From the NCBI GenBank assembly GCA_029859485.1, contig JAOUDB010000192.1, positions 1 to 5,591 of the forward strand: a DNA stretch of 5,591 nucleotides, given 5' to 3'. Position 1 is the stretch's first letter; each line of letters opens with the position of its first letter. Below the pieces are notes generated by a model. That model was not told the DNA's origin. It did no database searches and saw only the letters and a list, made by a program, of their open reading frames with translations. The translations under genes and the position numbers were made by a program. This document shows positions 1 through 5,212 of the stretch, in pieces. The DNA comes from Desulfuromonadales bacterium. GTDB lineage: Bacteria > Desulfobacterota > Desulfuromonadia > Desulfuromonadales > BM103.

Positions 1-91
1 TTTCAATCCACCCTTCAGCGTATTCCTAAATGTTGTCCCACCATATTATATAGGCGACTTTTTCAAGCATGAAAGAGGGTTTCCAGCAACT

Positions 92-242
92 CCTGATAAA
101 TAGTAAATGGCCACTCGGAATCGATCTAGGTGGCCATAGTTTTTGTTTATTAAAGAGCTTACTGAATGTCTATCAAGAAGAAGCAGTTTTTCTTCTCGTA
201 AGTCGTGACTTGTAAGAAAGGCCACCCGTGTCCATGTGGCCA
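92..242 (-). repeat. Interspersed repeat copy R1 (complete, both end hairpins)
   Basis: This is one of five related intergenic repeats in the window. The left hairpin pairs TGGCCAC (108-114) with GTGGCCA (130-136). The right hairpin pairs GGCCAC (220-225) with GTGGCC (236-241). The core between them has the family blocks GCTTACTGAAT and TATCAAGAAGAAG, then GTCGTGAC. The left flank CCTGATAAATA (92-102) is also shared with R4, so the unit extends beyond the hairpin. Compared with R2, the core lacks 2 nt between the CTGAAT and CTATC blocks. On the minus strand the right hairpin is followed by TTTCTTAC and lies 45 nt past the OB-fold gene stop, so it could end that transcript. Strand is given as the sense of the neighbouring genes. 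A 65-codon minus-strand reading frame crosses this copy, but I regard it as incidental. Confidence 0.85.
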
Positions 243-286
243 TATTATTGCGAGTTCAGTTTTTCTGTAATAGTGCCGTCACCAGC

Positions 287-745
287 TTATTTAATAGATT
301 TGATCCATCCTTCCAGAGTTTTAGACCAGTCCCCCAAGGGTTTCGTCCCTTCCTCTACTAGTAATGCAGTCTCTGGTAAAATTTCCACTTCCCGTATGCG
401 GAAGCCAATTGACTCTCCCCCTATGATTGCGGCATTGCTCCCAATTCCTATAATCGCAATTTTTGAACCGAGTTTAGGAGTGTCCAGATTAGTTATAACT
501 TTCACTTGCCCAGTCCCATCGTCTAAGACATAACTCCGTGAGCCAACAAGGGGGATGCTCAGTGTATCAACAACTTTTCCCTTAATTTTAACTCGCTTTC
601 CTTCATATACGTTTGGAGTTTCATTAAGCTGGGCAATCTCGGTAAAACCGAAAGGCAAATAATCTTTTGTCAGATAACCGATAATAACGAGCAAAACGAA
701 TATAATCAGTAGCAAAAATGTTTTTACAAAGCCCTTGTTTCCCAT
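287..745 (-). CDS. Membrane-anchored OB-fold protein, function unknown
   Basis: The product is 152 residues. Residues about 7-25 (FVKTFLLLIIFVLLVIIGY) form one hydrophobic segment, read as an N-terminal anchor or uncleaved signal, so the rest is probably periplasmic or extracytoplasmic. Residues about 47-121 look like an OB-fold beta-barrel: YEGKRVKIKGKV, then SYVLDDGTGQVKVIT with the turn DDGTGQ typical of tRNA_anti-like domains, then KLGSKIAIIGI and GFRIREVE. The C-terminus (LGDWSKTLEGWIKSIK) is probably helical. I chose ATG at 745 because GGAG sits 5 nt upstream; a TTG at 763 would add six residues but has no clear ribosome site. Related small OB-fold proteins bind nucleic acid or ligands, but no substrate can be inferred here. 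It is a stand-alone gene with R2 upstream and R1 just downstream. The fold call is by sequence pattern only. Confidence 0.8.
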   Translation of the reverse strand: MGNKGFVKTFLLLIIFVLLVIIGYLTKDYLPFGFTEIAQLNETPNVYEGKRVKIKGKVVDTLSIPLVGSRSYVLDDGTGQVKVITNLDTPKLGSKIAIIGIGSNAAIIGGESIGFRIREVEILPETALLVEEGTKPLGDWSKTLEGWIKSIK

Positions 746-903
746 AAAATCTCCAAATTCCAAACAATCGAGTTTCAGCGGTGAAATAACATGATTAAAC
801 GAAGATCCATAATCTTTCTATAAACAAGCCCTATGTTTGCACTGTTCTTAAAGCCTGTCCATTTTTTTCAAGCTCTTTACTTAATTCCCTGCGGCATGAG
901 AAA

Positions 904-1032
904 AGCCACCCGTTTCCAGGTGACCTTCATTACGTGTATTAAAGCGCTTACTGAATACCTCTATCAATAAGAAGCCGGTTTTATTCTCAGAAGTCGTGAC
1001 AAATAAGAACGGTCACCCTTTTCCAGGGGGCC
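904..1032 (-). repeat. Interspersed repeat copy R2 (complete)
   Basis: This copy lies in the spacer between the OB-fold gene and the DUF3012-like gene. The left hairpin pairs CCACC (906-910) with GGTGA/G-type bases at 919-924. The right hairpin pairs GGTCACCC (1011-1018) with GGGGGCC (1026-1032), including a T-G pair and one mismatch. Its core is the best preserved with R4: by hand about 61 of 76 positions agree, including GTGTATTAAA, GCTTACTGAA, ACCTCTATCA and TAAGAAG. The loop of its left hairpin (CCGTTTCCAG) resembles the right-hand hairpins of R1 and R2 rather than the left hairpins of other copies, suggesting exchange between ends. On the minus strand the element begins 28 nt after the DUF3012 gene stop. 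Confidence 0.85.
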
Positions 1033-1060
1033 GAAATTTCCAAAAGTTAGCCGGGGGCTC

Positions 1061-1267
1061 TTACCTAATGATACAATGCTTTACGTAATCAGACGCTTCA
1101 CTTGCCGTCCAATCACCTTTCGGCTTCTCTTTCATATCCTCTAACCATTTGTCACTGCCGACTTCTGGTGAAGATCCAATTACTATTGCAATCAAACAAA
1201 AAAAACACAGGCTGAACCCTTTGAATAAATTCATCGTTCTATCTCTCTGAACTCTCCTAAAGGTCAT
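1061..1267 (-). CDS. Small exported DUF3012-like protein lacking the lipobox cysteine
   Basis: The product is 68 residues, or 57 if the internal ATG at 1234 is used. After a basic N-terminus and a hydrophobic stretch (residues about 18-31) comes PEVGSDKW (34-41), then EDMKEKPKGDWTA (43-55) and the ending YVKHCIIR. From memory this matches the DUF3012 family of tiny Gram-negative lipoproteins, in which a lipobox Cys directly precedes SPEVGS and another Cys follows the Trp. Here those positions are Ser32 (TCT) and Leu42 (TTA), so it should not be lipidated and may be secreted or membrane-anchored. The GTG/ATG choice is unsettled: GGAG lies 7 nt before the 1267 ATG, while AGAGAGA precedes the 1234 ATG. 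The family's role is unknown. R2 follows it, and ilvB lies upstream on the same strand, 213 nt away. Confidence 0.8.
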   Translation of the reverse strand: MTFRRVQRDRTMNLFKGFSLCFFCLIAIVIGSSPEVGSDKWLEDMKEKPKGDWTASEASDYVKHCIIR

Positions 1268-1403
1268 TGTGATACTCCATTAAATATTCTGATGTCACTT
1301 ATACTCACACTGGAGTTGGGGTCAAAGTCGATTGGCGCCATATTTATACCCCTGCATTGCTTGCGGGTGTGAGGTTGGCTGAAATGCGAAACTCTTGCTG
1401 ACC

Positions 1404-1424
1404 CTATAAAAGGCCTAAGCCTCC
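1404..1424 (-). terminator. Weak possible terminator after ilvB
   Basis: On the minus strand, GGAGGC (1424-1419) can pair with GCCTTT (1414-1409) across the loop TTAG, followed by TTTA-type bases. Only four pairs are Watson-Crick and two are G-T, so this is a weak candidate. It lies about 57 nt past the ilvB stop. I see no better hairpin with a T-tract in the 213-nt spacer between ilvB and the DUF3012-like gene, so read-through between the two is possible. Confidence 0.2.
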
Positions 1425-1480
1425 CCCTGAAAACCAGAGACACTATACCTTGCCCGTTTGATTAAACTGGACCATGAAGT

Positions 1481-3355
1481 TTAAATATTATGACCCTGTT
1501 TATCCCTGGAAAGTTTCAGCAGGTCCTCATCGTTCATAATGATATCGCGATAGGTGCCTCCGGCGGGAATCATCGGATAAATGTTTTCCTCGGCTTTAAC
1601 GATAATATCGAGCAGGTAGGGCTCGTCAGCATCTTCCAGCATCCGCGCAAAAGCGGCCGGCAGTTCCTCCTTGCTCGTTACCCTCTCAGCCTTAACACGG
1701 TAACCTTCTGCAATGGTGATAAAGTCTGGGTAGATATCCTGTCCATCCGAAGTTTTTTTCTTACGGCGGGGATCGGACAGGTCGGTACCTGACCGATGAC
1801 CGTCGTAGATCATGTCCTGCCACTGACGCACCATGCCTAACCATTGGTTGTTGATGACAACCACCTTAACTCCTATGCTGTAGCGGTGGCAGGCGGCCAG
1901 TTCGTGAATGGTCATATTCAAGGAGCCGTCACCATCGATATCGATCACCAACCTTTTGGGGCAGCCCACCTTGGCCCCCATGGCGGCCGGAAGCCCGTAC
2001 CCCATTGTGCCGAAGCCTGAACTGCTGAGAAACGAACGGACCTGCCGGCTTCGGTAGTGTTGCATTGCCCACATCTGGTGCTGGCCAACACCCAGGCTCA
2101 CAATTGCATCGCCGTTTGTAAACTTACTTAACTGGGAGATGGCATATTGCGGGGTAATGACCTCGCTCTCGGGAACCTGAAAAGGGAACTGTTCACGCAG
2201 TCCAGCGAGGTAGACCAGCCATTCACTGCAATTTGTGTCTTTGGAAATATCTATCAGTTGACACAAGGCGGGCCTGAGATCGGCACAGACCGGCAAGGTG
2301 ACCGGTTTGTTTTTATTCAGTTCGTCTCGATCGATATCAATATGAATGATTTTGCCGTGCTTGATAAACTCGCTGATGTTTCCCGTAACTCGATCATCGA
2401 AACGCACGCCTAGGGCCAGGACCAGGTCGGCTTCGTTGATCGCCACGTTGGCATATTTACTGCCATGCATACCGAGGATGTCCAGAGCCAAAGGATGCCC
2501 GGGGGGGAAGGCGCCATGACCCATCAGGGTGGTGGTCACCGGGCAGGAGAGTCGTTCCGCCAGTTCCAGAAGTTCATTGTGGCTGTTTGAACTGACAATG
2601 CCACCCCCGGCGTAGATGACCGGACGCTTCGCTTCGGAAATCAGACGCCGGCATTCCTCAAGTTGGGTTTCACTGATCCCCACAATAACAGCTTCAGGAG
2701 GCTCAATGACGGCCGGCATCCGTGGTGGGGTGTAATTGCCCTCCGGATCGCGTGGATAATGCTGCTGGATATCCTTGGGGATATCGATCAACACAGGCCC
2801 TGGTCGGTTACCATCTGCTAGGGCAAAGGCTTCACGGACAATCTCCGGAACGTCAGTGACCTTTTTGACCAGATAGCTTTTCTTGGTCACAGGCCTGGTG
2901 ATGCTGACAATGTCGACCTCCTGAAAGGCGTTTTTCCCCAGCAGGTGAGATGGGACATTGCCGGTAATCGCAACAATGGGAATGGAGTCACTGTATGCAT
3001 CAGCAATTCCGGTCACCATGTTGGTCGCCCCGGGGCCTGAAGTGGCGAGGCAGACACCGATCTTCCCAGTCGCCCGCGCATAACCCTGAGCGGCATGAAC
3101 CGCTCCCTGTTCGTGTTCAGTGCGAATGCAGCGAATATTAAATTCTCTCAAAACATCGAAAATTTCCAGATTGGCTCCGCCAGGGTAACCGAAGAGGGTG
3201 TCCACATTCTCCAATTGTAGGCATTTGGCAAGAATCTGGGCGCCACGGAGTGCTACACCACGCTGTTCAGGACGGATATCTTTGAGTTGCCCGCCTGTTA
3301 CAGTGCCAATGTTCTGGTAGGTCACGTTATCTTGCTGGTTGGTTGTCTTGCTCAT
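1481..3355 (-). CDS. ilvB: Acetolactate (acetohydroxyacid) synthase large subunit
   Basis: This 624-residue thiamine-diphosphate enzyme condenses pyruvate with pyruvate or 2-oxobutyrate, the first common step of valine, leucine and isoleucine synthesis, in the cytoplasm. The N-terminal TPP domain has FGYPGG (55-60) and RTEHEQGA (78-85) with the catalytic Glu82, then FQE (144-146) and RPGPVLIDIPKD (184-195). The central domain has GVRFDDRVTG (316-325), typical of FAD-containing anabolic enzymes rather than the FAD-free catabolic AlsS. The C-terminal domain has GDGSLN (475-480) with INN (501-503), the Mg/TPP motif, then QWLGMVRQWQ (504-513). A Lys/Asp-rich insert of about 15 residues (roughly 525-541) precedes YPDF. 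I chose ATG at 3355, with GGGAG 10 nt upstream; a GTG at 3418 adds 21 unconserved residues with no ribosome site. No ilvN or ilvC is adjacent, and no leader peptide rich in branched-chain codons is evident upstream. Confidence 0.97.
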   Translation of the reverse strand: MSKTTNQQDNVTYQNIGTVTGGQLKDIRPEQRGVALRGAQILAKCLQLENVDTLFGYPGGANLEIFDVLREFNIRCIRTEHEQGAVHAAQGYARATGKIGVCLATSGPGATNMVTGIADAYSDSIPIVAITGNVPSHLLGKNAFQEVDIVSITRPVTKKSYLVKKVTDVPEIVREAFALADGNRPGPVLIDIPKDIQQHYPRDPEGNYTPPRMPAVIEPPEAVIVGISETQLEECRRLISEAKRPVIYAGGGIVSSNSHNELLELAERLSCPVTTTLMGHGAFPPGHPLALDILGMHGSKYANVAINEADLVLALGVRFDDRVTGNISEFIKHGKIIHIDIDRDELNKNKPVTLPVCADLRPALCQLIDISKDTNCSEWLVYLAGLREQFPFQVPESEVITPQYAISQLSKFTNGDAIVSLGVGQHQMWAMQHYRSRQVRSFLSSSGFGTMGYGLPAAMGAKVGCPKRLVIDIDGDGSLNMTIHELAACHRYSIGVKVVVINNQWLGMVRQWQDMIYDGHRSGTDLSDPRRKKKTSDGQDIYPDFITIAEGYRVKAERVTSKEELPAAFARMLEDADEPYLLDIIVKAEENIYPMIPAGGTYRDIIMNDEDLLKLSRDKQGHNI

Positions 3356-3503
3356 CTGAACACAACTCCCATCTACGCGTATTTTAAAATCATCCGATCT
3401 TACTATCGCGTATTCCACGTCAATTAGTCCAGTGATTCCGTCGGTAAAACCCCAATTTGGAAGGGTCTTGCCAAAGACTCACAAGTCCTAAATCGCAAGA
3501 AAA

Positions 3504-3625
3504 TGGCCACTCGGAATTGATCCAGGTGGCCATCATTTTATCGTCCTAAATTGCGCTATCAATAACACGCCGAATTTCGTCTCGGCAGTAGTGAATTTTG
3601 AGAAAAAAAGCCATTTCACATTTTA
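3504..3625 (-). repeat. Interspersed repeat copy R3 (degenerate)
   Basis: The left hairpin is intact: TGGCCAC (3504-3510) pairs with GTGGCCA (3526-3532), and its interior (TCGGAATTGATCCAG) is nearly that of R1. The core is decayed: CCTAAAT and GCTATCAATAA remain recognisable, the latter matching the family block CTCTATCAATAA, and the right-hand hairpin survives only as AAAAGCCA. This is the one copy that sits upstream of ilvB rather than 3' of a minus-strand gene; it lies between ilvB and the divergent small plus-strand ORF. On the minus strand the left hairpin is followed by ATTTTCTTGC. The right boundary is approximate. Confidence 0.7.
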
Positions 3626-3660
3626 TTCACAATTTTTCAACATCCCTATCACACTTCATC

Positions 3661-3714
3661 GTTTAAAGTACGCTCAACAATTAAGAACTAACCAATCGTG
3701 TTGAGTATTTAAAC
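3661..3714. repeat. Imperfect inverted repeat, 19/16-nt arms
   Basis: GTTTAAAGTACGCTCAACA (3661-3679) is complementary to TGTTGAGTATTTAAAC (3699-3714), apart from a three-base length difference near the middle of the arm; the two ends pair as GTTTAAA/TTTAAAC and CTCAACA/TGTTGAG. The 19-nt loop has no recognisable content. There is no T-tract on either side, so it is not a typical terminator. It could be an operator, a small mobile-element remnant, or the edge of a larger element. Confidence 0.5.
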
Positions 3715-3774
3715 CTCCTGAAAAACTTTTTCCTTTGCCTCCGAGGTCTTTTAATCAGAAGAGTGGGTCTAATT

Positions 3775-3843
3775 CCCCGCAGTTTGCTGCGTGATCTTGC
3801 AAAGGTTACAGGCTGTTGATACCTCGTAGCTTGCTGCGAGGTA
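3775..3843. repeat. Pair of REP-like hairpins
   Basis: Two related hairpins share the apex sequence (G)CAG/TAG-YTTG-CTGCG. The first (3775-3793) pairs CGCAG with CTGCG around TTTG, with a partly mismatched base below. The second (3820-3843) pairs TACCTCGTAG with CTGCGAGGTA around CTTG, ten pairs including one G-T, and is followed by GTTCATTT; GTAG lies across the foot of the stem. They are 26 nt apart in direct orientation. The form resembles extragenic palindromic (REP) elements that are mobilised by REP-associated tyrosine transposases. No such transposase is in the window. They end 79 nt before the small ORF's ATG, so they may lie in its 5' region. Confidence 0.6.
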
Positions 3844-3922
3844 GTTCATTTAAGTCAAGAAAAGTGTGGTAAGTTTGGCTTGTTTAATGCTTAGAAAGTT
3901 ACGAAGAAAAGGAGTTAAGACA

Positions 3923-4093
3923 ATGAAACAAGATTTGTTGGGAGACATAGCAATGCAACGTTCCATTGCTGGTTGGGACATTAGCGAAATTGATGATGAA
4001 CAACAATATTTGTTGAGCAAAGATCACGATCAAATTTGTGAATTTTTCTTGGGCTTTATAAGCACACGTCACGCACAAAGAACATGGCAATAA
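3923..4093 (+). CDS. Small hypothetical protein, 56 residues
   Basis: I do not recognise this protein. It is the only plus-strand gene candidate. ATG at 3923 has GGAG (3911-3914) 8 nt upstream in an AAAAGGAGTTAAGACA context, the best ribosome site in the spacer; an in-frame start at 3866 would add 19 residues with no such site. The product is soluble-looking and acidic in the middle (DISEIDDEQQYLLSKDHDQ), followed by a short hydrophobic stretch (EFFLGFIS) and a basic end (TRHAQRTWQ). There is no signal peptide, membrane segment or known motif. It is flanked by REP-like hairpins upstream and a non-coding spacer downstream and is not linked to another gene. Conservation of the reading frame in relatives would be needed to prove it is real. 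Confidence 0.5.
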   Translation: MKQDLLGDIAMQRSIAGWDISEIDDEQQYLLSKDHDQICEFFLGFISTRHAQRTWQ

Positions 4094-4256
4094 CTTCAAA
4101 TATGAAAACGGAGTAACAGTGAACCAAGGAAAAGGGTACGCCTGCGTTGGGAGCATGGGTGCGCTGGTTTGAACCCAGTTATACATACCAATGACGTGTA
4201 TTATCAGTTGTCTAGAGTTTTAAGAAAGAATTTCAAGCAGGTAGGAGCATGACTCT
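4094..4256. other. Spacer with no supported gene
   Basis: Beyond the small ORF there is a 163-nt stretch without a convincing gene. It holds a 17-codon GTG-started frame (4119-4172) behind GGAG, and a hairpin-like TGGGT...ACCCA that also looks like a tRNA T-arm followed by CCA (4163-4190); both are discussed among the rejected items. The whole gene-free region 4094-4718 otherwise contains the MITE-like element, repeat R4 and an unassigned 172-nt stretch (4547-4718). Confidence 0.6.
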
Positions 4257-4371
4257 TGCGAGAGGATTTTTATTATTTATCTGTAGTAGTTCAGACTTAA
4301 TCTGACAGTTGCCGGTTTTGCGGAGGTGTCTGTCAGGTCAAGTCGCGACTACTACAATTTATCCTCTCGCA
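4257..4371. mobile_element. MITE-like nested inverted-repeat element
   Basis: The outer arms TGCGAGAGGAT (4257-4267) and ATCCTCTCGCA (4361-4371) are a perfect 11-bp inverted repeat. Inside, a 27-nt arm (4282-4308), beginning TGTAGTAGT and ending CTGACAG, matches the reverse complement of 4330-4356 at 22 of 27 positions. The inner loop is 21 nt. The two arms are offset, with 14 nt between outer and inner arms on the left and 4 nt on the right. The form fits two insertion-sequence ends brought together without a transposase, or a small non-autonomous transposable element. No target-site duplication was found beyond the outer repeat. It encodes nothing. Confidence 0.6.
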
Positions 4372-4417
4372 TTGTTTTGAAGGCTCCAGATTCGCCAAAA
4401 CACCAAATTATTACTGA

Positions 4418-4546
4418 CCCTGATAAATAAAAACGGCCACCAAGGATCGTCCCCTTGTGGCCATAGTTTTGTGTATTAAACAGCTTACTGAAAACCTCTA
4501 TCAGTAAGAAGTTGTTTTTCCTCTCACGAATCGTAACCAATAAGGA
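4418..4546 (-). repeat. Interspersed repeat copy R4 (right hairpin lost)
   Basis: The left hairpin is the strongest of the family: GGCCAC plus AAGG (4435-4445) pairs with CCTT plus GTGGCC (4453-4462), with one bulged base, ten pairs in all. The core keeps GTGTATTAAA, GCTTACTGAA, ACCTCTATCA and TAAGAAG, and ends in CAATAAGGATTC where R1 and R2 continue into a second hairpin. The flank CCTGATAAATA is shared with R1. It lies 172 nt past the DUF1059-like gene stop. A 95-codon minus-strand frame runs through it (4352-4639), starting outside the repeat; I do not count it as a gene. Confidence 0.85.
4422..4462 (-). terminator. Intrinsic-terminator-like hairpin in R4
   Basis: Read on the minus strand, the ten-pair GGCCAC hairpin with a seven-nucleotide loop is followed directly by GTTTTTATTTATC. 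Stem, loop and T-tract fit a factor-independent terminator for minus-strand transcripts. It lies about 256 nt beyond the DUF1059-like gene stop, so it would end a transcript with a long 3' untranslated region. Confidence 0.5.
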
Positions 4547-4718
4547 TTCTTTTAGATTAAAGGTCCTATCAAACTCAACCGAAAGTCCGTTTTCATGCCT
4601 TAACCAGCGGTCTTTAAAAGGGCTATTATCCGTAAACATTCAACCGTCTCAAAAAAAACATTGCACATTCTGCTTTCAAAAAGAAGGGTATGTAAACTTA
4701 ACGGATTAGCTTTATCCA

Positions 4719-4919
4719 TTAGGTTAGGTCTAGTGGCAACCCTTCCTTGATGTCTTTACGAATCAATTCCCTGAACTCTTTTGTGTCATTATCCCCGTGT
4801 ACCCTAATATTATGTTTTACCACTTCCTCAATAAGCTCTTCTTCAGTATCAGCAGACAAAATCATTGAGCATTTAGGGCCTTCCGGATAACTACGGCAAT
4901 CAAAATATTTTCTTCCCAT
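4719..4919 (-). CDS. DUF1059-like small Cys/His protein
   Basis: The product is 66 residues. It opens with KYFDCRS and has Cys8, Cys17, His36 and His41 in the arrangement FDC...C...VVKHNIRVHG; from memory this is the pattern of the DUF1059 family, small cytoplasmic proteins with paired Cys and His that could bind a metal. The middle (SADTEEELIEEVVKH) is an acidic amphipathic helix and the end (RKDIKEGLPLDLT) is charged. No function is established for the family. I chose ATG at 4919, with AGAGGA five nt upstream; the alternative TTG at 4964 would add 15 residues unlike the family and has no better ribosome site. A strong hairpin lies about 40 nt upstream of this start, in the likely leader. 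Confidence 0.85.
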   Translation of the reverse strand: MGRKYFDCRSYPEGPKCSMILSADTEEELIEEVVKHNIRVHGDNDTKEFRELIRKDIKEGLPLDLT

Positions 4920-4957
4920 AATTTCCTCTTTACCAGAATTATTTACCAAAAGATAGA

Positions 4958-4983
4958 GGCCCAAAGAGATTTCTCTGTGGGCC
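4958..4983 (-). promoter_or_regulatory. Strong hairpin in the leader of the DUF1059-like gene
   Basis: GGCCCA (4958-4963) pairs with TGGGCC (4978-4983), and AGAG (4965-4968) with CTCT (4973-4976), with one A/G mismatch and an ATTT tetraloop: ten pairs in all. On the minus strand it is followed by TCTATCTTTT, an imperfect T-tract, 39 nt before the gene's ATG. It could terminate transcripts arriving from the radical SAM side, or act as an attenuator in the 5' leader. There is no sign of a sensing aptamer. Confidence 0.45.
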
Positions 4984-5012
4984 CCATTGCCTAACGAGTT
5001 GAAAAAACCAAC

Positions 5013-5042
5013 TTACTTTTCTTCACATTCTATGAAGAAGTA
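5013..5042. promoter_or_regulatory. Inverted repeat upstream of the DUF1059-like gene
   Basis: TTCTTCA (5019-5025) pairs with TGAAGAA (5033-5039) around a seven-nt gap, and TAC/GTA extends it past a two-base bulge. It lies about 100 nt upstream of the DUF1059-like start, in the region where its promoter should be. The seven-base half-sites with a seven-base gap could be an operator for a dimeric regulator or simply a hairpin. Confidence 0.3.
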
Positions 5043-5092
5043 TGTTTTGGTGAATAGATTACTCTTTTGGTAAGATATGTCAACAGGTAAAT

Positions 5093-5132
5093 GAAAATAA
5101 AAAAGGGCACCAAGGATCGAACCCTGGTGACC
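5093..5132 (-). terminator. Intrinsic-terminator-like hairpin in R5
   Basis: On the minus strand, GGTCACCAGG pairs with CCTTGGTGCCC across the loop GTTCGAT, with one bulge and one mismatch, and runs straight into TTTTTTATTTTC. This is the most terminator-like end of the repeat family here. It is 186 nt past the radical SAM gene stop and would end that transcript before the DUF1059-like gene. Confidence 0.55.
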
Positions 5133-5212
5133 ATAGTTTTAGCTACCTAAATGTCTCTATCAACAATAGGCTGTTTTCCTCTCATATGTTGTGACATTTA
5201 AGAAACCAGCCA
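5093..5212 (-). repeat. Interspersed repeat copy R5 (right hairpin decayed)
   Basis: The left hairpin (5105-5132) has the same interior as R4 (CACCAAGGATCG) and is followed by CCATAGTTTT, shared with R1 and R4. The core is shorter: CCTAAATGTCTCTATCAA replaces the longer block and the GCTTACTGAA motif is missing, as in R3. TGTTTTCCTCTC and GTGACATTTAAGAAACCA match the family's right half. The second hairpin is reduced to CCAGCCA. R3 and R5 therefore look like one subfamily, and R1, R2 and R4 another. Confidence 0.8.

What the first reader, a model, noticed from the sequence alone, without database searches (positions are those of the whole stretch)
92..5212. Dense family of intergenic hairpin-ended repeats (R1-R5)
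Five copies lie within 5.2 kb: 92-242, 904-1032, 3504-3625, 4418-4546 and 5093-5212. All have the same orientation, a GGCCAC-type left hairpin and a shared core (ATTAAA, GCTTACTGAA, CTCTATCA, TAAGAAG, TTCTC, GTCGTGAC). Divergence between copies (about 80% identity for R2/R4 cores, lower for R3 and R5) suggests an old, repeatedly spread family. A density near one copy per kb implies very many copies in the genome. I do not recognise it as a named repeat.
Basis: seen in the sequence. Interest (0 to 1): 0.8.

Follow-up and report, generated by a model that had tools for sequence, protein, structure and literature searches.

The report
Integron-like cassette array, serine recombinase
These repeats mark the borders of small gene units that lie one after another, nearly all facing one way, in arrays in a group of Desulfuromonadales-type bacteria and that turn up in a different order in related species; the repeats are likely the crossover sites of a small serine recombinase encoded right beside some of them, which would make this an integron-like gene-shuffling system built from unrelated parts.

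Summary
The five repeats are real and belong to a family of perhaps 100-200 copies in this genome (my estimate). They are not scattered evenly: they sit in AT-rich arrays, about one per 1.2 kb, with one polarity (adjacent pairs 209 same, 5 opposite). Gene segments shared between contigs, within and between species, end in the repeats (55 of 89 ends, 15.0 expected), and 0 of 38 comparable neighbours are conserved: cassette shuffling. The right end of the repeat is a 26-bp dyad, TTCTCagAAGTC-GT-GACTtaTaAGAA, the layout of a Hin-type crossover site with a non-palindromic central GT. A 190-aa small serine recombinase lies directly upstream of a repeat in six loci, the window's own genome included (four reach the dyad). 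In 18 other genera a dyad match follows the gene in 15 of 20 loci. One chromosomal site is empty in four relatives and holds an array in G001 and, as far as its contigs show, in the own genome. No integron integrase passes the cut-off in the own genome; attC cores are lacking. My reading: an integron-like array with a serine recombinase. Shuffling is well supported; the serine mechanism is inferred, with scattered left breakpoints and one repeat-rich isolate with a relic gene against it.

The parts
70..221 (+). Repeat R1 (hairpin, core, dyad)
   Evidence: profile match, 135 bits
109..135 (+). R1 left hairpin GGCCAC..GTGGCC
   Evidence: sequence; hairpin covariation over 22 copies
193..218 (+). 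R1 26-bp dyad, predicted crossover site, central GT at 205-206
   Evidence: PWM score 38.4; dyad symmetry
287..763 (-). cassette gene, 158 aa, no Pfam family
   Evidence: ORF, Pfam scan
878..1014 (+). Repeat R2
   Evidence: profile match, 107 bits
984..1009 (+). R2 dyad, central GT 996-997
   Evidence: PWM score 39.5
1061..1267 (-). cassette gene, DUF3012
   Evidence: PF11216, 60 bits
1481..3418 (-). cassette gene: thiamine-pyrophosphate enzyme, acetolactate synthase-like (name of the enzyme is my reading of the Pfam set)
   Evidence: PF02776, PF00205, PF02775
3477..3610 (+). Repeat R3, divergent, lacks a stretch of about 12 nt
   Evidence: profile match, 75 bits; alignment
3579..3604 (+). R3 dyad, central GT 3591-3592
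   Evidence: PWM score 26.9
4201..4226 (+). degenerate dyad before the left-end module of R4
   Evidence: PWM score 7.7; weak. Two other weak scores (11.3 at 3476, 10.7 at 81) lie in the left parts of R3 and R1
4383..4550 (+). Repeat R4
   Evidence: profile match, 132 bits
4521..4546 (+). R4 dyad, central GT 4533-4534
   Evidence: PWM score 14.7
4719..4964 (-). cassette gene, DUF1059
   Evidence: PF06348, 40.5 bits
5095..5213 (+). Repeat R5, lacks a stretch of about 12 nt
   Evidence: profile match, 82 bits; alignment
5179..5204 (+). R5 dyad, central GT 5191-5192
   Evidence: PWM score 30.4

Best explanation
The repeats are the border elements of gene cassettes that follow one another in one-way arrays, and they likely carry the crossover site of a small serine recombinase that would cut and rejoin the cassettes at a 26-bp dyad with a central GT. 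Shown: one polarity, shuffling of cassettes between contigs and species with breaks in the repeat, a conserved dyad at the sharp end, and a 190-aa Hin/resolvase-type recombinase gene directly upstream of a repeat copy, on the same strand. Inferred: the recombinase dimer binds the two 12-bp half-sites, a tetramer joins two sites, and exchange at GT between direct sites excises or inserts a circle of one cassette. Because GT is not its own complement, sites can join in one direction only, which would keep the array polarised. The covarying hairpin follows the stop codon of the recombinase gene and would serve as its terminator. The ordinary repeat may be what remains when the recombinase gene is lost from such a unit: its left end is recognisable upstream of the gene in one copy, weakly by profile, and its right end lies downstream of the gene.
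For: Polarity: 209 adjacent pairs same, 5 opposite; 43 of 47 pieces with three or more copies uniform (116 pieces, 1.03 Mb of four genomes, partly chosen for holding repeats). Shuffling: 55 of 89 ends of shared segments lie at a repeat, 15.0 expected, maximum 27 in 1000 draws; 33 homologous cassette pairs (24 between genomes), 32 in the same orientation to the repeat, 0 of 38 neighbours homologous, while a repeat-free 12.6-kb stretch is colinear between G000 and G001. Crossover: 9 of 16 right-attached breaks fall in model columns 139-156, and 0 of 18 left-attached homologies pass column 153; the dyad centre is 145/146. Central G and T are 98% and 97% conserved (189 copies). Gene and repeat joined: the repeat match starts within 2 nt of the end of the recombinase gene or overlaps it by a few nt in 6 loci of 4 genomes; it runs on through the dyad in 4 of them. 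Across the order, 18 of 24 loci (15 of 20 outside the genus) have a dyad match in the 300 nt 3' of the gene at p<=0.05 by shuffles. Catalytic serine and arginine motifs align with Gin and gamma-delta resolvase. Dyad counts: 102 in the own genome and 84 in G001, with 0 for the reversed pattern (a near-palindrome, so some sites count twice). Array locus: empty in G003, G004, G005 and G009; array with repeats beyond both flanks in G001; in G000 repeats beyond the right flank.
Against: No recombination was observed; everything is comparative. Left-attached breaks are scattered (columns 11-153), so homologous recombination or gene conversion in the repeat body is likely as well. The dyad symmetry passes the 95% but not the 99% null (4.36 against 4.14 and 4.59). 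In the own genome the contig ends before the dyad beside the gene, and in G003 only the hairpin part follows the gene and no dyad is found. In G005, which seems an isolate, with 61 copies in the 241 kb taken, the gene is only a 68-residue relic without an adjacent repeat. In 6 of 24 loci no dyad was found after the gene, and in three of the 18 (G026, G122, G033) the best match lies at an odd place (positions 9, 6 and 268), so may not be the same site. Another recombinase could be the catalyst, as phage-type integrases occur in several of these genomes. Five polarity reversals exist. About 27-30% of neighbouring ORFs of 100 aa or more run the other way (47 of 176 and 50 of 169). Many of the genomes are fragmented drafts.
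Confidence: 0.62

Rival explanations
1. Cassette-like shuffling by ordinary homologous recombination between about 150-nt direct repeats. The repeats spread as passive elements, and RecA-type exchange between them moves the intervening genes; the serine recombinase only spread the repeats in the past.
For: Left-attached breakpoints are scattered along the repeat body; linkage between repeat columns is low throughout; G005 has many repeats but only a relic of the gene.
Against: Right-attached breaks cluster at the dyad (9 of 16); the central G and T are among the most conserved columns of the right end; exchange by homology does not by itself impose 209 to 5 polarity.
Confidence: 0.18
2. MITE-like non-autonomous elements of a serine-recombinase element that insert singly between genes, with an orientation bias set by replication; the array pattern is secondary.
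For: The ordinary repeat looks like a gene-carrying unit with the gene removed; 5 of 227 copies lie inside ORFs of 100 aa or more, so the family is mostly intergenic.
Against: No single-copy empty site in the DNA fetched: both flanks adjacent elsewhere for 2 of 203 copies, and there with the repeat; 0 of 38 conserved neighbours; strong clustering with a sharp array edge.
Confidence: 0.12
3. A divergent classical integron array without integrase (CALIN): the repeats are unusual attC sites moved by an IntI tyrosine recombinase elsewhere.
For: Array layout and polarity are those of chromosomal integrons; IntI genes occur in the genus in G003, G006 and G008, and as a partial match in G009.
Against: GTTRRRY and RYYYAAC occur at any one column in at most 3 of 223 copies (motif recalled); the IntI loci fetched carry no repeat match, and their own sites look classical by eye; no match over the IntI cut-off in G000, G001, G005 or G007.
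Confidence: 0.04
4. Transcription terminators or regulatory 3' elements kept downstream of genes.
For: Most neighbouring ORFs are antisense to the repeat, with the stop a median 64 nt away; the hairpin covaries.
Against: Polarity is uniform although a quarter or more of the neighbouring ORFs run the other way; core and dyad are conserved as well as the hairpin; it explains neither breakpoints nor the recombinase link.
Confidence: 0.04

Closest known systems
Integron (chromosomal, with cassette array; passages read in PMC8618304)
   Same: Polarised array of gene cassettes with a shared recombination site, same cassettes in different order in related species, recombinase in the system.
   Different: Recombinase would be a small serine enzyme, not a tyrosine integrase; the site is a double-strand dyad without attC core motifs; the recombinase gene itself lies in the arrays like a cassette, in several copies in G001; most cargo genes read away from the repeat body.
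Hin/Gin/Cin DNA invertases and their 26-bp sites (passages read in PMC4817059; other site details recalled)
   Same: Protein family, length, catalytic motifs, 26-bp site; half-sites of 12 bp and a 2-bp core (recalled).
   Different: Sites are direct repeats by the dozen and border gene cassettes; no inverted pair around a switch was seen.
Tn3/gamma-delta resolvases
   Same: Protein family; act on directly repeated sites (recalled).
   Different: I did not notice a Tn3-type transposase beside the gene in the loci read, but did not search for one; accessory res-like dyads were not detected above the null.
MITEs and other small intergenic repeats such as REP elements
   Same: Small, mostly intergenic, multi-copy, hairpin-containing, perhaps derived from a gene-carrying unit.
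   Different: Clustered, polarised, and bordering shuffled cassettes; no single-copy empty sites found.
Staphylococcal SCC elements and XerCD dif-modules (recalled, nothing read)
   Same: Gene units bordered by site-specific recombination sites that can stand in tandem.
   Different: SCC uses large serine recombinases and few units; dif-modules use XerC/XerD. Neither was compared here by sequence.

Membership tests
Integron | IntI tyrosine recombinase in the genome | tested here: not met
   TIGR02249 over the cut-off in 3 of 11 genus genomes (G003, G006, G008), not in G000, G001, G005 or G007. G000 is 91.6% complete, so absence there is not proof.
Integron | attC core boxes (RYYYAAC, GTTRRRY; recalled) | tested here: not met
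   at most 3 of 223 copies at any column
Integron | polarised tandem array of gene cassettes with shared end site | tested here: met
Integron | attI site beside the integrase gene | not tested
   no IntI over the cut-off in the repeat-rich genomes to look beside
Small serine recombinase (protein) | Resolvase domain with catalytic Ser and Arg motifs plus C-terminal HTH | tested here: met
   PF00239 130-131 bits, HTH below its cut-off; aligned with Gin and gamma-delta
Hin-type crossover site | 26-bp dyad of two 12-bp half-sites around 2 bp | tested here: met
   columns 133-158; score 4.36, null 95% 4.14, 99% 4.59: met at the 5% level only
Hin-type crossover site | recombined by the recombinase | not testable with these tools
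   needs an assay
MITE | empty and filled orthologous sites of single copies | tested here: not met
   0 empty among 203 copies, fetched DNA only
MITE | related gene-carrying parent element | tested here: inconclusive
   repeat right part abuts the recombinase gene; left part upstream in L225 by weak profile match (E 0.007) and by eye
REP of RAYT / IS200-IS605 type | Y1 transposase linked to the repeat | tested here: inconclusive
   2 Y1_Tnp genes in the genome, one with an in-frame stop on C93, a contig that holds repeats; no systematic linkage looked for
XerCD dif-modules | dif-like sites | not tested
   the genome's dif was not determined

The most novel reading that the evidence does not exclude
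A second, independently built integron: chromosomal super-arrays of gene cassettes captured, stored and reshuffled by a Hin-like serine recombinase that travels as a cassette in its own arrays, with polarity fixed by a non-palindromic two-base core.
Probability: 0.48. Interest if true: 0.93.

Novelty: categorically new. Interest (0 to 1): 0.85.

Why it matters
Integrons are the textbook case of a bacterial gene-capture array, and by definition rest on a tyrosine integrase (PMC8618304, passages). A cassette system of the same layout with a serine recombinase and an ordinary double-strand site would show that the cassette-array principle arose more than once, would give a simple one-protein, 26-bp test system, and would mean that integron surveys by IntI and attC miss a class of arrays. 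It also makes an open question testable: how a gene acquires its cassette site. Here what may be the parent unit, with its gene still in place, can be read beside the derived repeats.

Tried and rejected
Rfam: only a weak hit at 4261-4309 (25 bits, gathering 65), in a palindrome inside the left end of R4, not in the repeat family. Plasmids: one 26-base chance-level match. Viral contigs: 0. IS200/IS605 or RAYT origin: two Y1 genes, no systematic link to the repeats looked for. Classical integron: rejected on IntI and on attC motifs. A fixed crossover from column linkage alone: no clear minimum at one point; the cassette-pair method was used instead, with a clear right-side cluster but scattered left-side breaks. 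Accessory recombinase sites inside the repeat: the next best dyads outside the hairpin and the main dyad (columns 95-124 and others) are below the null. Empty site for the single recombinase cassette in G001:C2: the flank occurs in one other genome of the 11, where a repeat also adjoins it. The T-arm-like loop TTCGATC of one hairpin type (by eye) was considered as a tRNA origin and dropped, because other hairpin types have another loop. Papers: searches listed no serine-recombinase cassette array that I could recognise; listings and abstract starts only were seen, plus passages of PMC8618304 and PMC4817059. The library lacks most subscription papers and all bioRxiv preprints.
Full report
THE OBSERVATION. 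The window is contig C444 of a 3.45-Mb draft genome in 637 contigs (G000). Across 61 of 67 copies that could be anchored the right edge is sharp; the left edge is soft. The left hairpin covaries. A blastn search with R1 in the own genome lists 40 matches, the limit of the listing, from 144 first-look candidates. The dyad pattern, up to two mismatches, has 102 matches in the own genome and none for the reversed control; the pattern is nearly palindromic, so some sites count on both strands. Unselected contigs C1-C34 hold 10 copies in 191 kb. From these two I estimate roughly 100-200 copies.

POLARITY AND CLUSTERING. Copies are not spread evenly. In C1-C34 only 4 of 34 contigs hold any. DNA within 1.5 kb of a copy has 44.8% G+C, the rest of the fetched DNA 49.9%. 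In 116 pieces (1.03 Mb, partly chosen because they hold copies) of G000 and three relatives of the genus (G001, G005, G007) there are 293 copies of at least 30 bits. Adjacent copies point the same way 209 times and opposite ways 5 times; 43 of 47 pieces with three or more copies are uniform. Median spacing is 1.18 kb. Mechanical ORFs of at least 100 aa within 600 nt of a copy are antisense to it in 129 of 176 cases on its right and 119 of 169 on its left; the gap on the right is a median 64 nt for antisense ORFs (G000, G001, G005). In G001 one array edge is sharp: on contig C3, G+C falls from about 0.53 to 0.43 where the copies begin.

CASSETTES ARE SHUFFLED. Segments of at least 88% identity shared between repeat-bearing pieces, of the same or different genomes, end at a repeat in 55 of 89 cases, against 15.0 expected for random ends (maximum 27 in 1000 draws). 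Cutting 171 units from crossover to crossover gives 33 homologous pairs between pieces, 24 of them between genomes; 32 of 33 keep their orientation to the repeat, and 0 of 38 testable neighbours are homologous. By contrast a repeat-free 12.6-kb stretch of G000 is colinear with G001. For 203 copies with full flanks, both flanks lie together elsewhere in only 2 cases, the same locus seen from both sides, with the repeat present (only fetched DNA was searched).

WHERE THE EXCHANGE HAPPENS. A change-point analysis of the repeats at the ends of shared cassettes gave 34 breaks, some from related comparisons. Of 16 on the right-attached side, 9 fall in columns 139-156 of the model; of 18 on the left-attached side none passes column 153, but they scatter from 11 to 153. 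The common boundary is the centre of a 26-bp dyad at columns 133-158: TTCTCagAAGTC-GT-GACTtaTaAGAA. Its symmetry scores 4.36, above the 95% null (4.14) and below the 99% null (4.59). The central G and T are 98% and 97% conserved, among the best columns of the right end (189 copies). The five window copies all keep the central GT; their scores are 39.5 to 14.7. The scatter on the left side suggests that homologous exchange within the repeat body also occurs.

THE RECOMBINASE. Small serine recombinases were searched in the 11 genomes of the genus. One subfamily of about 190 aa ends where a repeat match begins, on the same strand, in six loci of four genomes. In four (G009:C63, G001:C13, G001:C2, and G001:C11, a copy with in-frame stops) the repeat runs on to its right end. 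In the own genome (G000:C568, an open gene) the contig ends before the dyad. In G003:C70 only the hairpin part follows, and no dyad is found. The protein has a Resolvase domain, is closest in the PDB to Gin and gamma-delta resolvase, and has the serine, arginine and DRxxR positions aligned. In one copy the left part of the repeat lies upstream of the gene, as a weak profile match (E 0.007) that reads well by eye, so the ordinary repeat resembles this unit with the gene removed. In the order, 43 of 136 genomes have a match at E 1e-30 or better. I looked at 26 of the 30 loci listed there. In the 300 nt after the gene, 18 of 24 loci with enough sequence have a dyad match at p<=0.05 by shuffling (about one expected by chance): 3 of 4 in the genus and 15 of 20 in 18 other genera. 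In G026, G122 and G033 the match lies at an odd place. The other matches include loci where the rest of the repeat is not recognised. In the large protein set 7216 of 8000 scored candidates match at 1e-20; several carry the name Pin-like DNA invertase. Against the link: G005 has 61 copies in the pieces taken but only a relic of the gene, and G002, with 14 dyad matches against 4 in the control, has no match at 1e-30.

EMPTY AND FILLED LOCUS. One array edge in G001 follows an AMP-ligase-like gene (my reading of its sequence). The same gene was found in 10 genomes; a repeat follows it by profile only in G001. In G005, G003 and G009 the next chromosomal gene follows after 214, 104 and 68 nt, and in G004 the same DNA follows. 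In G002, G006 and G010 other genes follow, and in G008 the contig ends. In G001 the next gene lies on C4 with four repeat copies beyond it. In G000 one flank lies on C620, which shares about 175 nt more with the G001 edge and then ends without a profile match; the other flank lies on C485, one gene further in than in G001, and a repeat begins 16 nt after it. The copies at the two G001 edges, and those on C485, keep one polarity when turned the same way. That contigs C11-C15 of G001 belong to the same array is likely but not shown.

COMPARISON. It is laid out like a chromosomal integron (definition from passages of PMC8618304), but two defining features were tested and not met: no IntI over the cut-off in G000, G001, G005 or G007, and no attC core boxes (motif recalled). 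IntI genes do exist in the genus (G003, G006, G008, partly G009) and no repeat match lies in those loci. The site matches the Hin type in length and layout; the 26-bp length of hix is from PMC4817059, half-sites, core and the likeness of TTCT..AGAA ends to other invertase sites are recalled. I therefore do not call it an integron; I say it works like one. I rate it categorically new because no known kind that I tested fits and nine paper searches listed no such system; that is absence from these listings, not proof.

NAMES. Repeat-bearing records with names are Desulfuromonadales bacterium MAG-BB-04-B, Deltaproteobacteria bacterium IMCC39146 (not labelled MAG, so seemingly an isolate), and other MAGs; G007 and G005 are these two by equal contig lengths.

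LIMITS. The evidence is comparative. Several of the genomes are fragmented, arrays break assemblies, and fetched pieces were partly chosen because they hold repeats; the statistics describe arrays, not whole genomes. Shared-segment counts hold related comparisons more than once. 

Noticed in passing
window 4280-4358: An 80-nt palindrome (arms 4282-4308 and 4330-4356) sits inside the left-end hairpin of R4, with ATTTATC on both sides like a target duplication; weak match to RF02349 psRNA2 (25 bits, below gathering). A partial second copy lies at L062:2850-2911.
   Followed up: partly
window 4215-4390 and left ends of other copies: A left-end module TTTACTATTTATCCTCTCGCATTG precedes 76 of 230 repeats tested, with up to 4 mismatches in its core; together with GCGAGAGGAT it can form a second hairpin, seen by eye.
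   Followed up: partly
repeat model columns about 19-44 and 96-122: The repeat holds an internal direct repeat (TTACTGA..CC..ATmAATAArAA), perhaps a doubled binding site; seen by eye only.
   Followed up: no
window 1481-3418: A 645-aa acetolactate synthase-like gene, a large metabolic gene, lies between two repeats.
   Followed up: no
window 3850-4263 and L049:2265-2678: A 94% identical second copy of this stretch lies on contig C19 of the same genome and ends at the left-end hairpin.
   Followed up: partly
L135, L136, L137, L138: Integron integrase genes (partial in L138) in G003, G006, G008 and G009 of the same genus; the next cassettes in L135, L136 and L138 have classical-looking attC sites by eye.
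   Followed up: partly
L270:2477-2636: An unrelated dispersed repeat of about 150 nt (CGCAAAGACGC..GCGTTGAATAC) at the empty locus of G005; many copies on both strands in G000, G001 and G007.
   Followed up: no
G001:C11 about 29.6-40.9 kb (L117, L193): Polarity flips near 30 kb, and by the dyad pattern flips back near 40 kb; a 952-bp stretch occurs there twice at 99.7% identity: a recent rearrangement or an assembly fault.
   Followed up: no
L150, L171, L157, L163, L165: Repeat copies in MAGs labelled Shewanella, Flavobacteriales and Desulfofustis; mixed bins or transfer. L150 holds two copies in opposite orientation.
   Followed up: no
L071, L072: Two Y1 transposase genes in the own genome, one with an in-frame stop on contig C93, which also holds repeats.
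   Followed up: no
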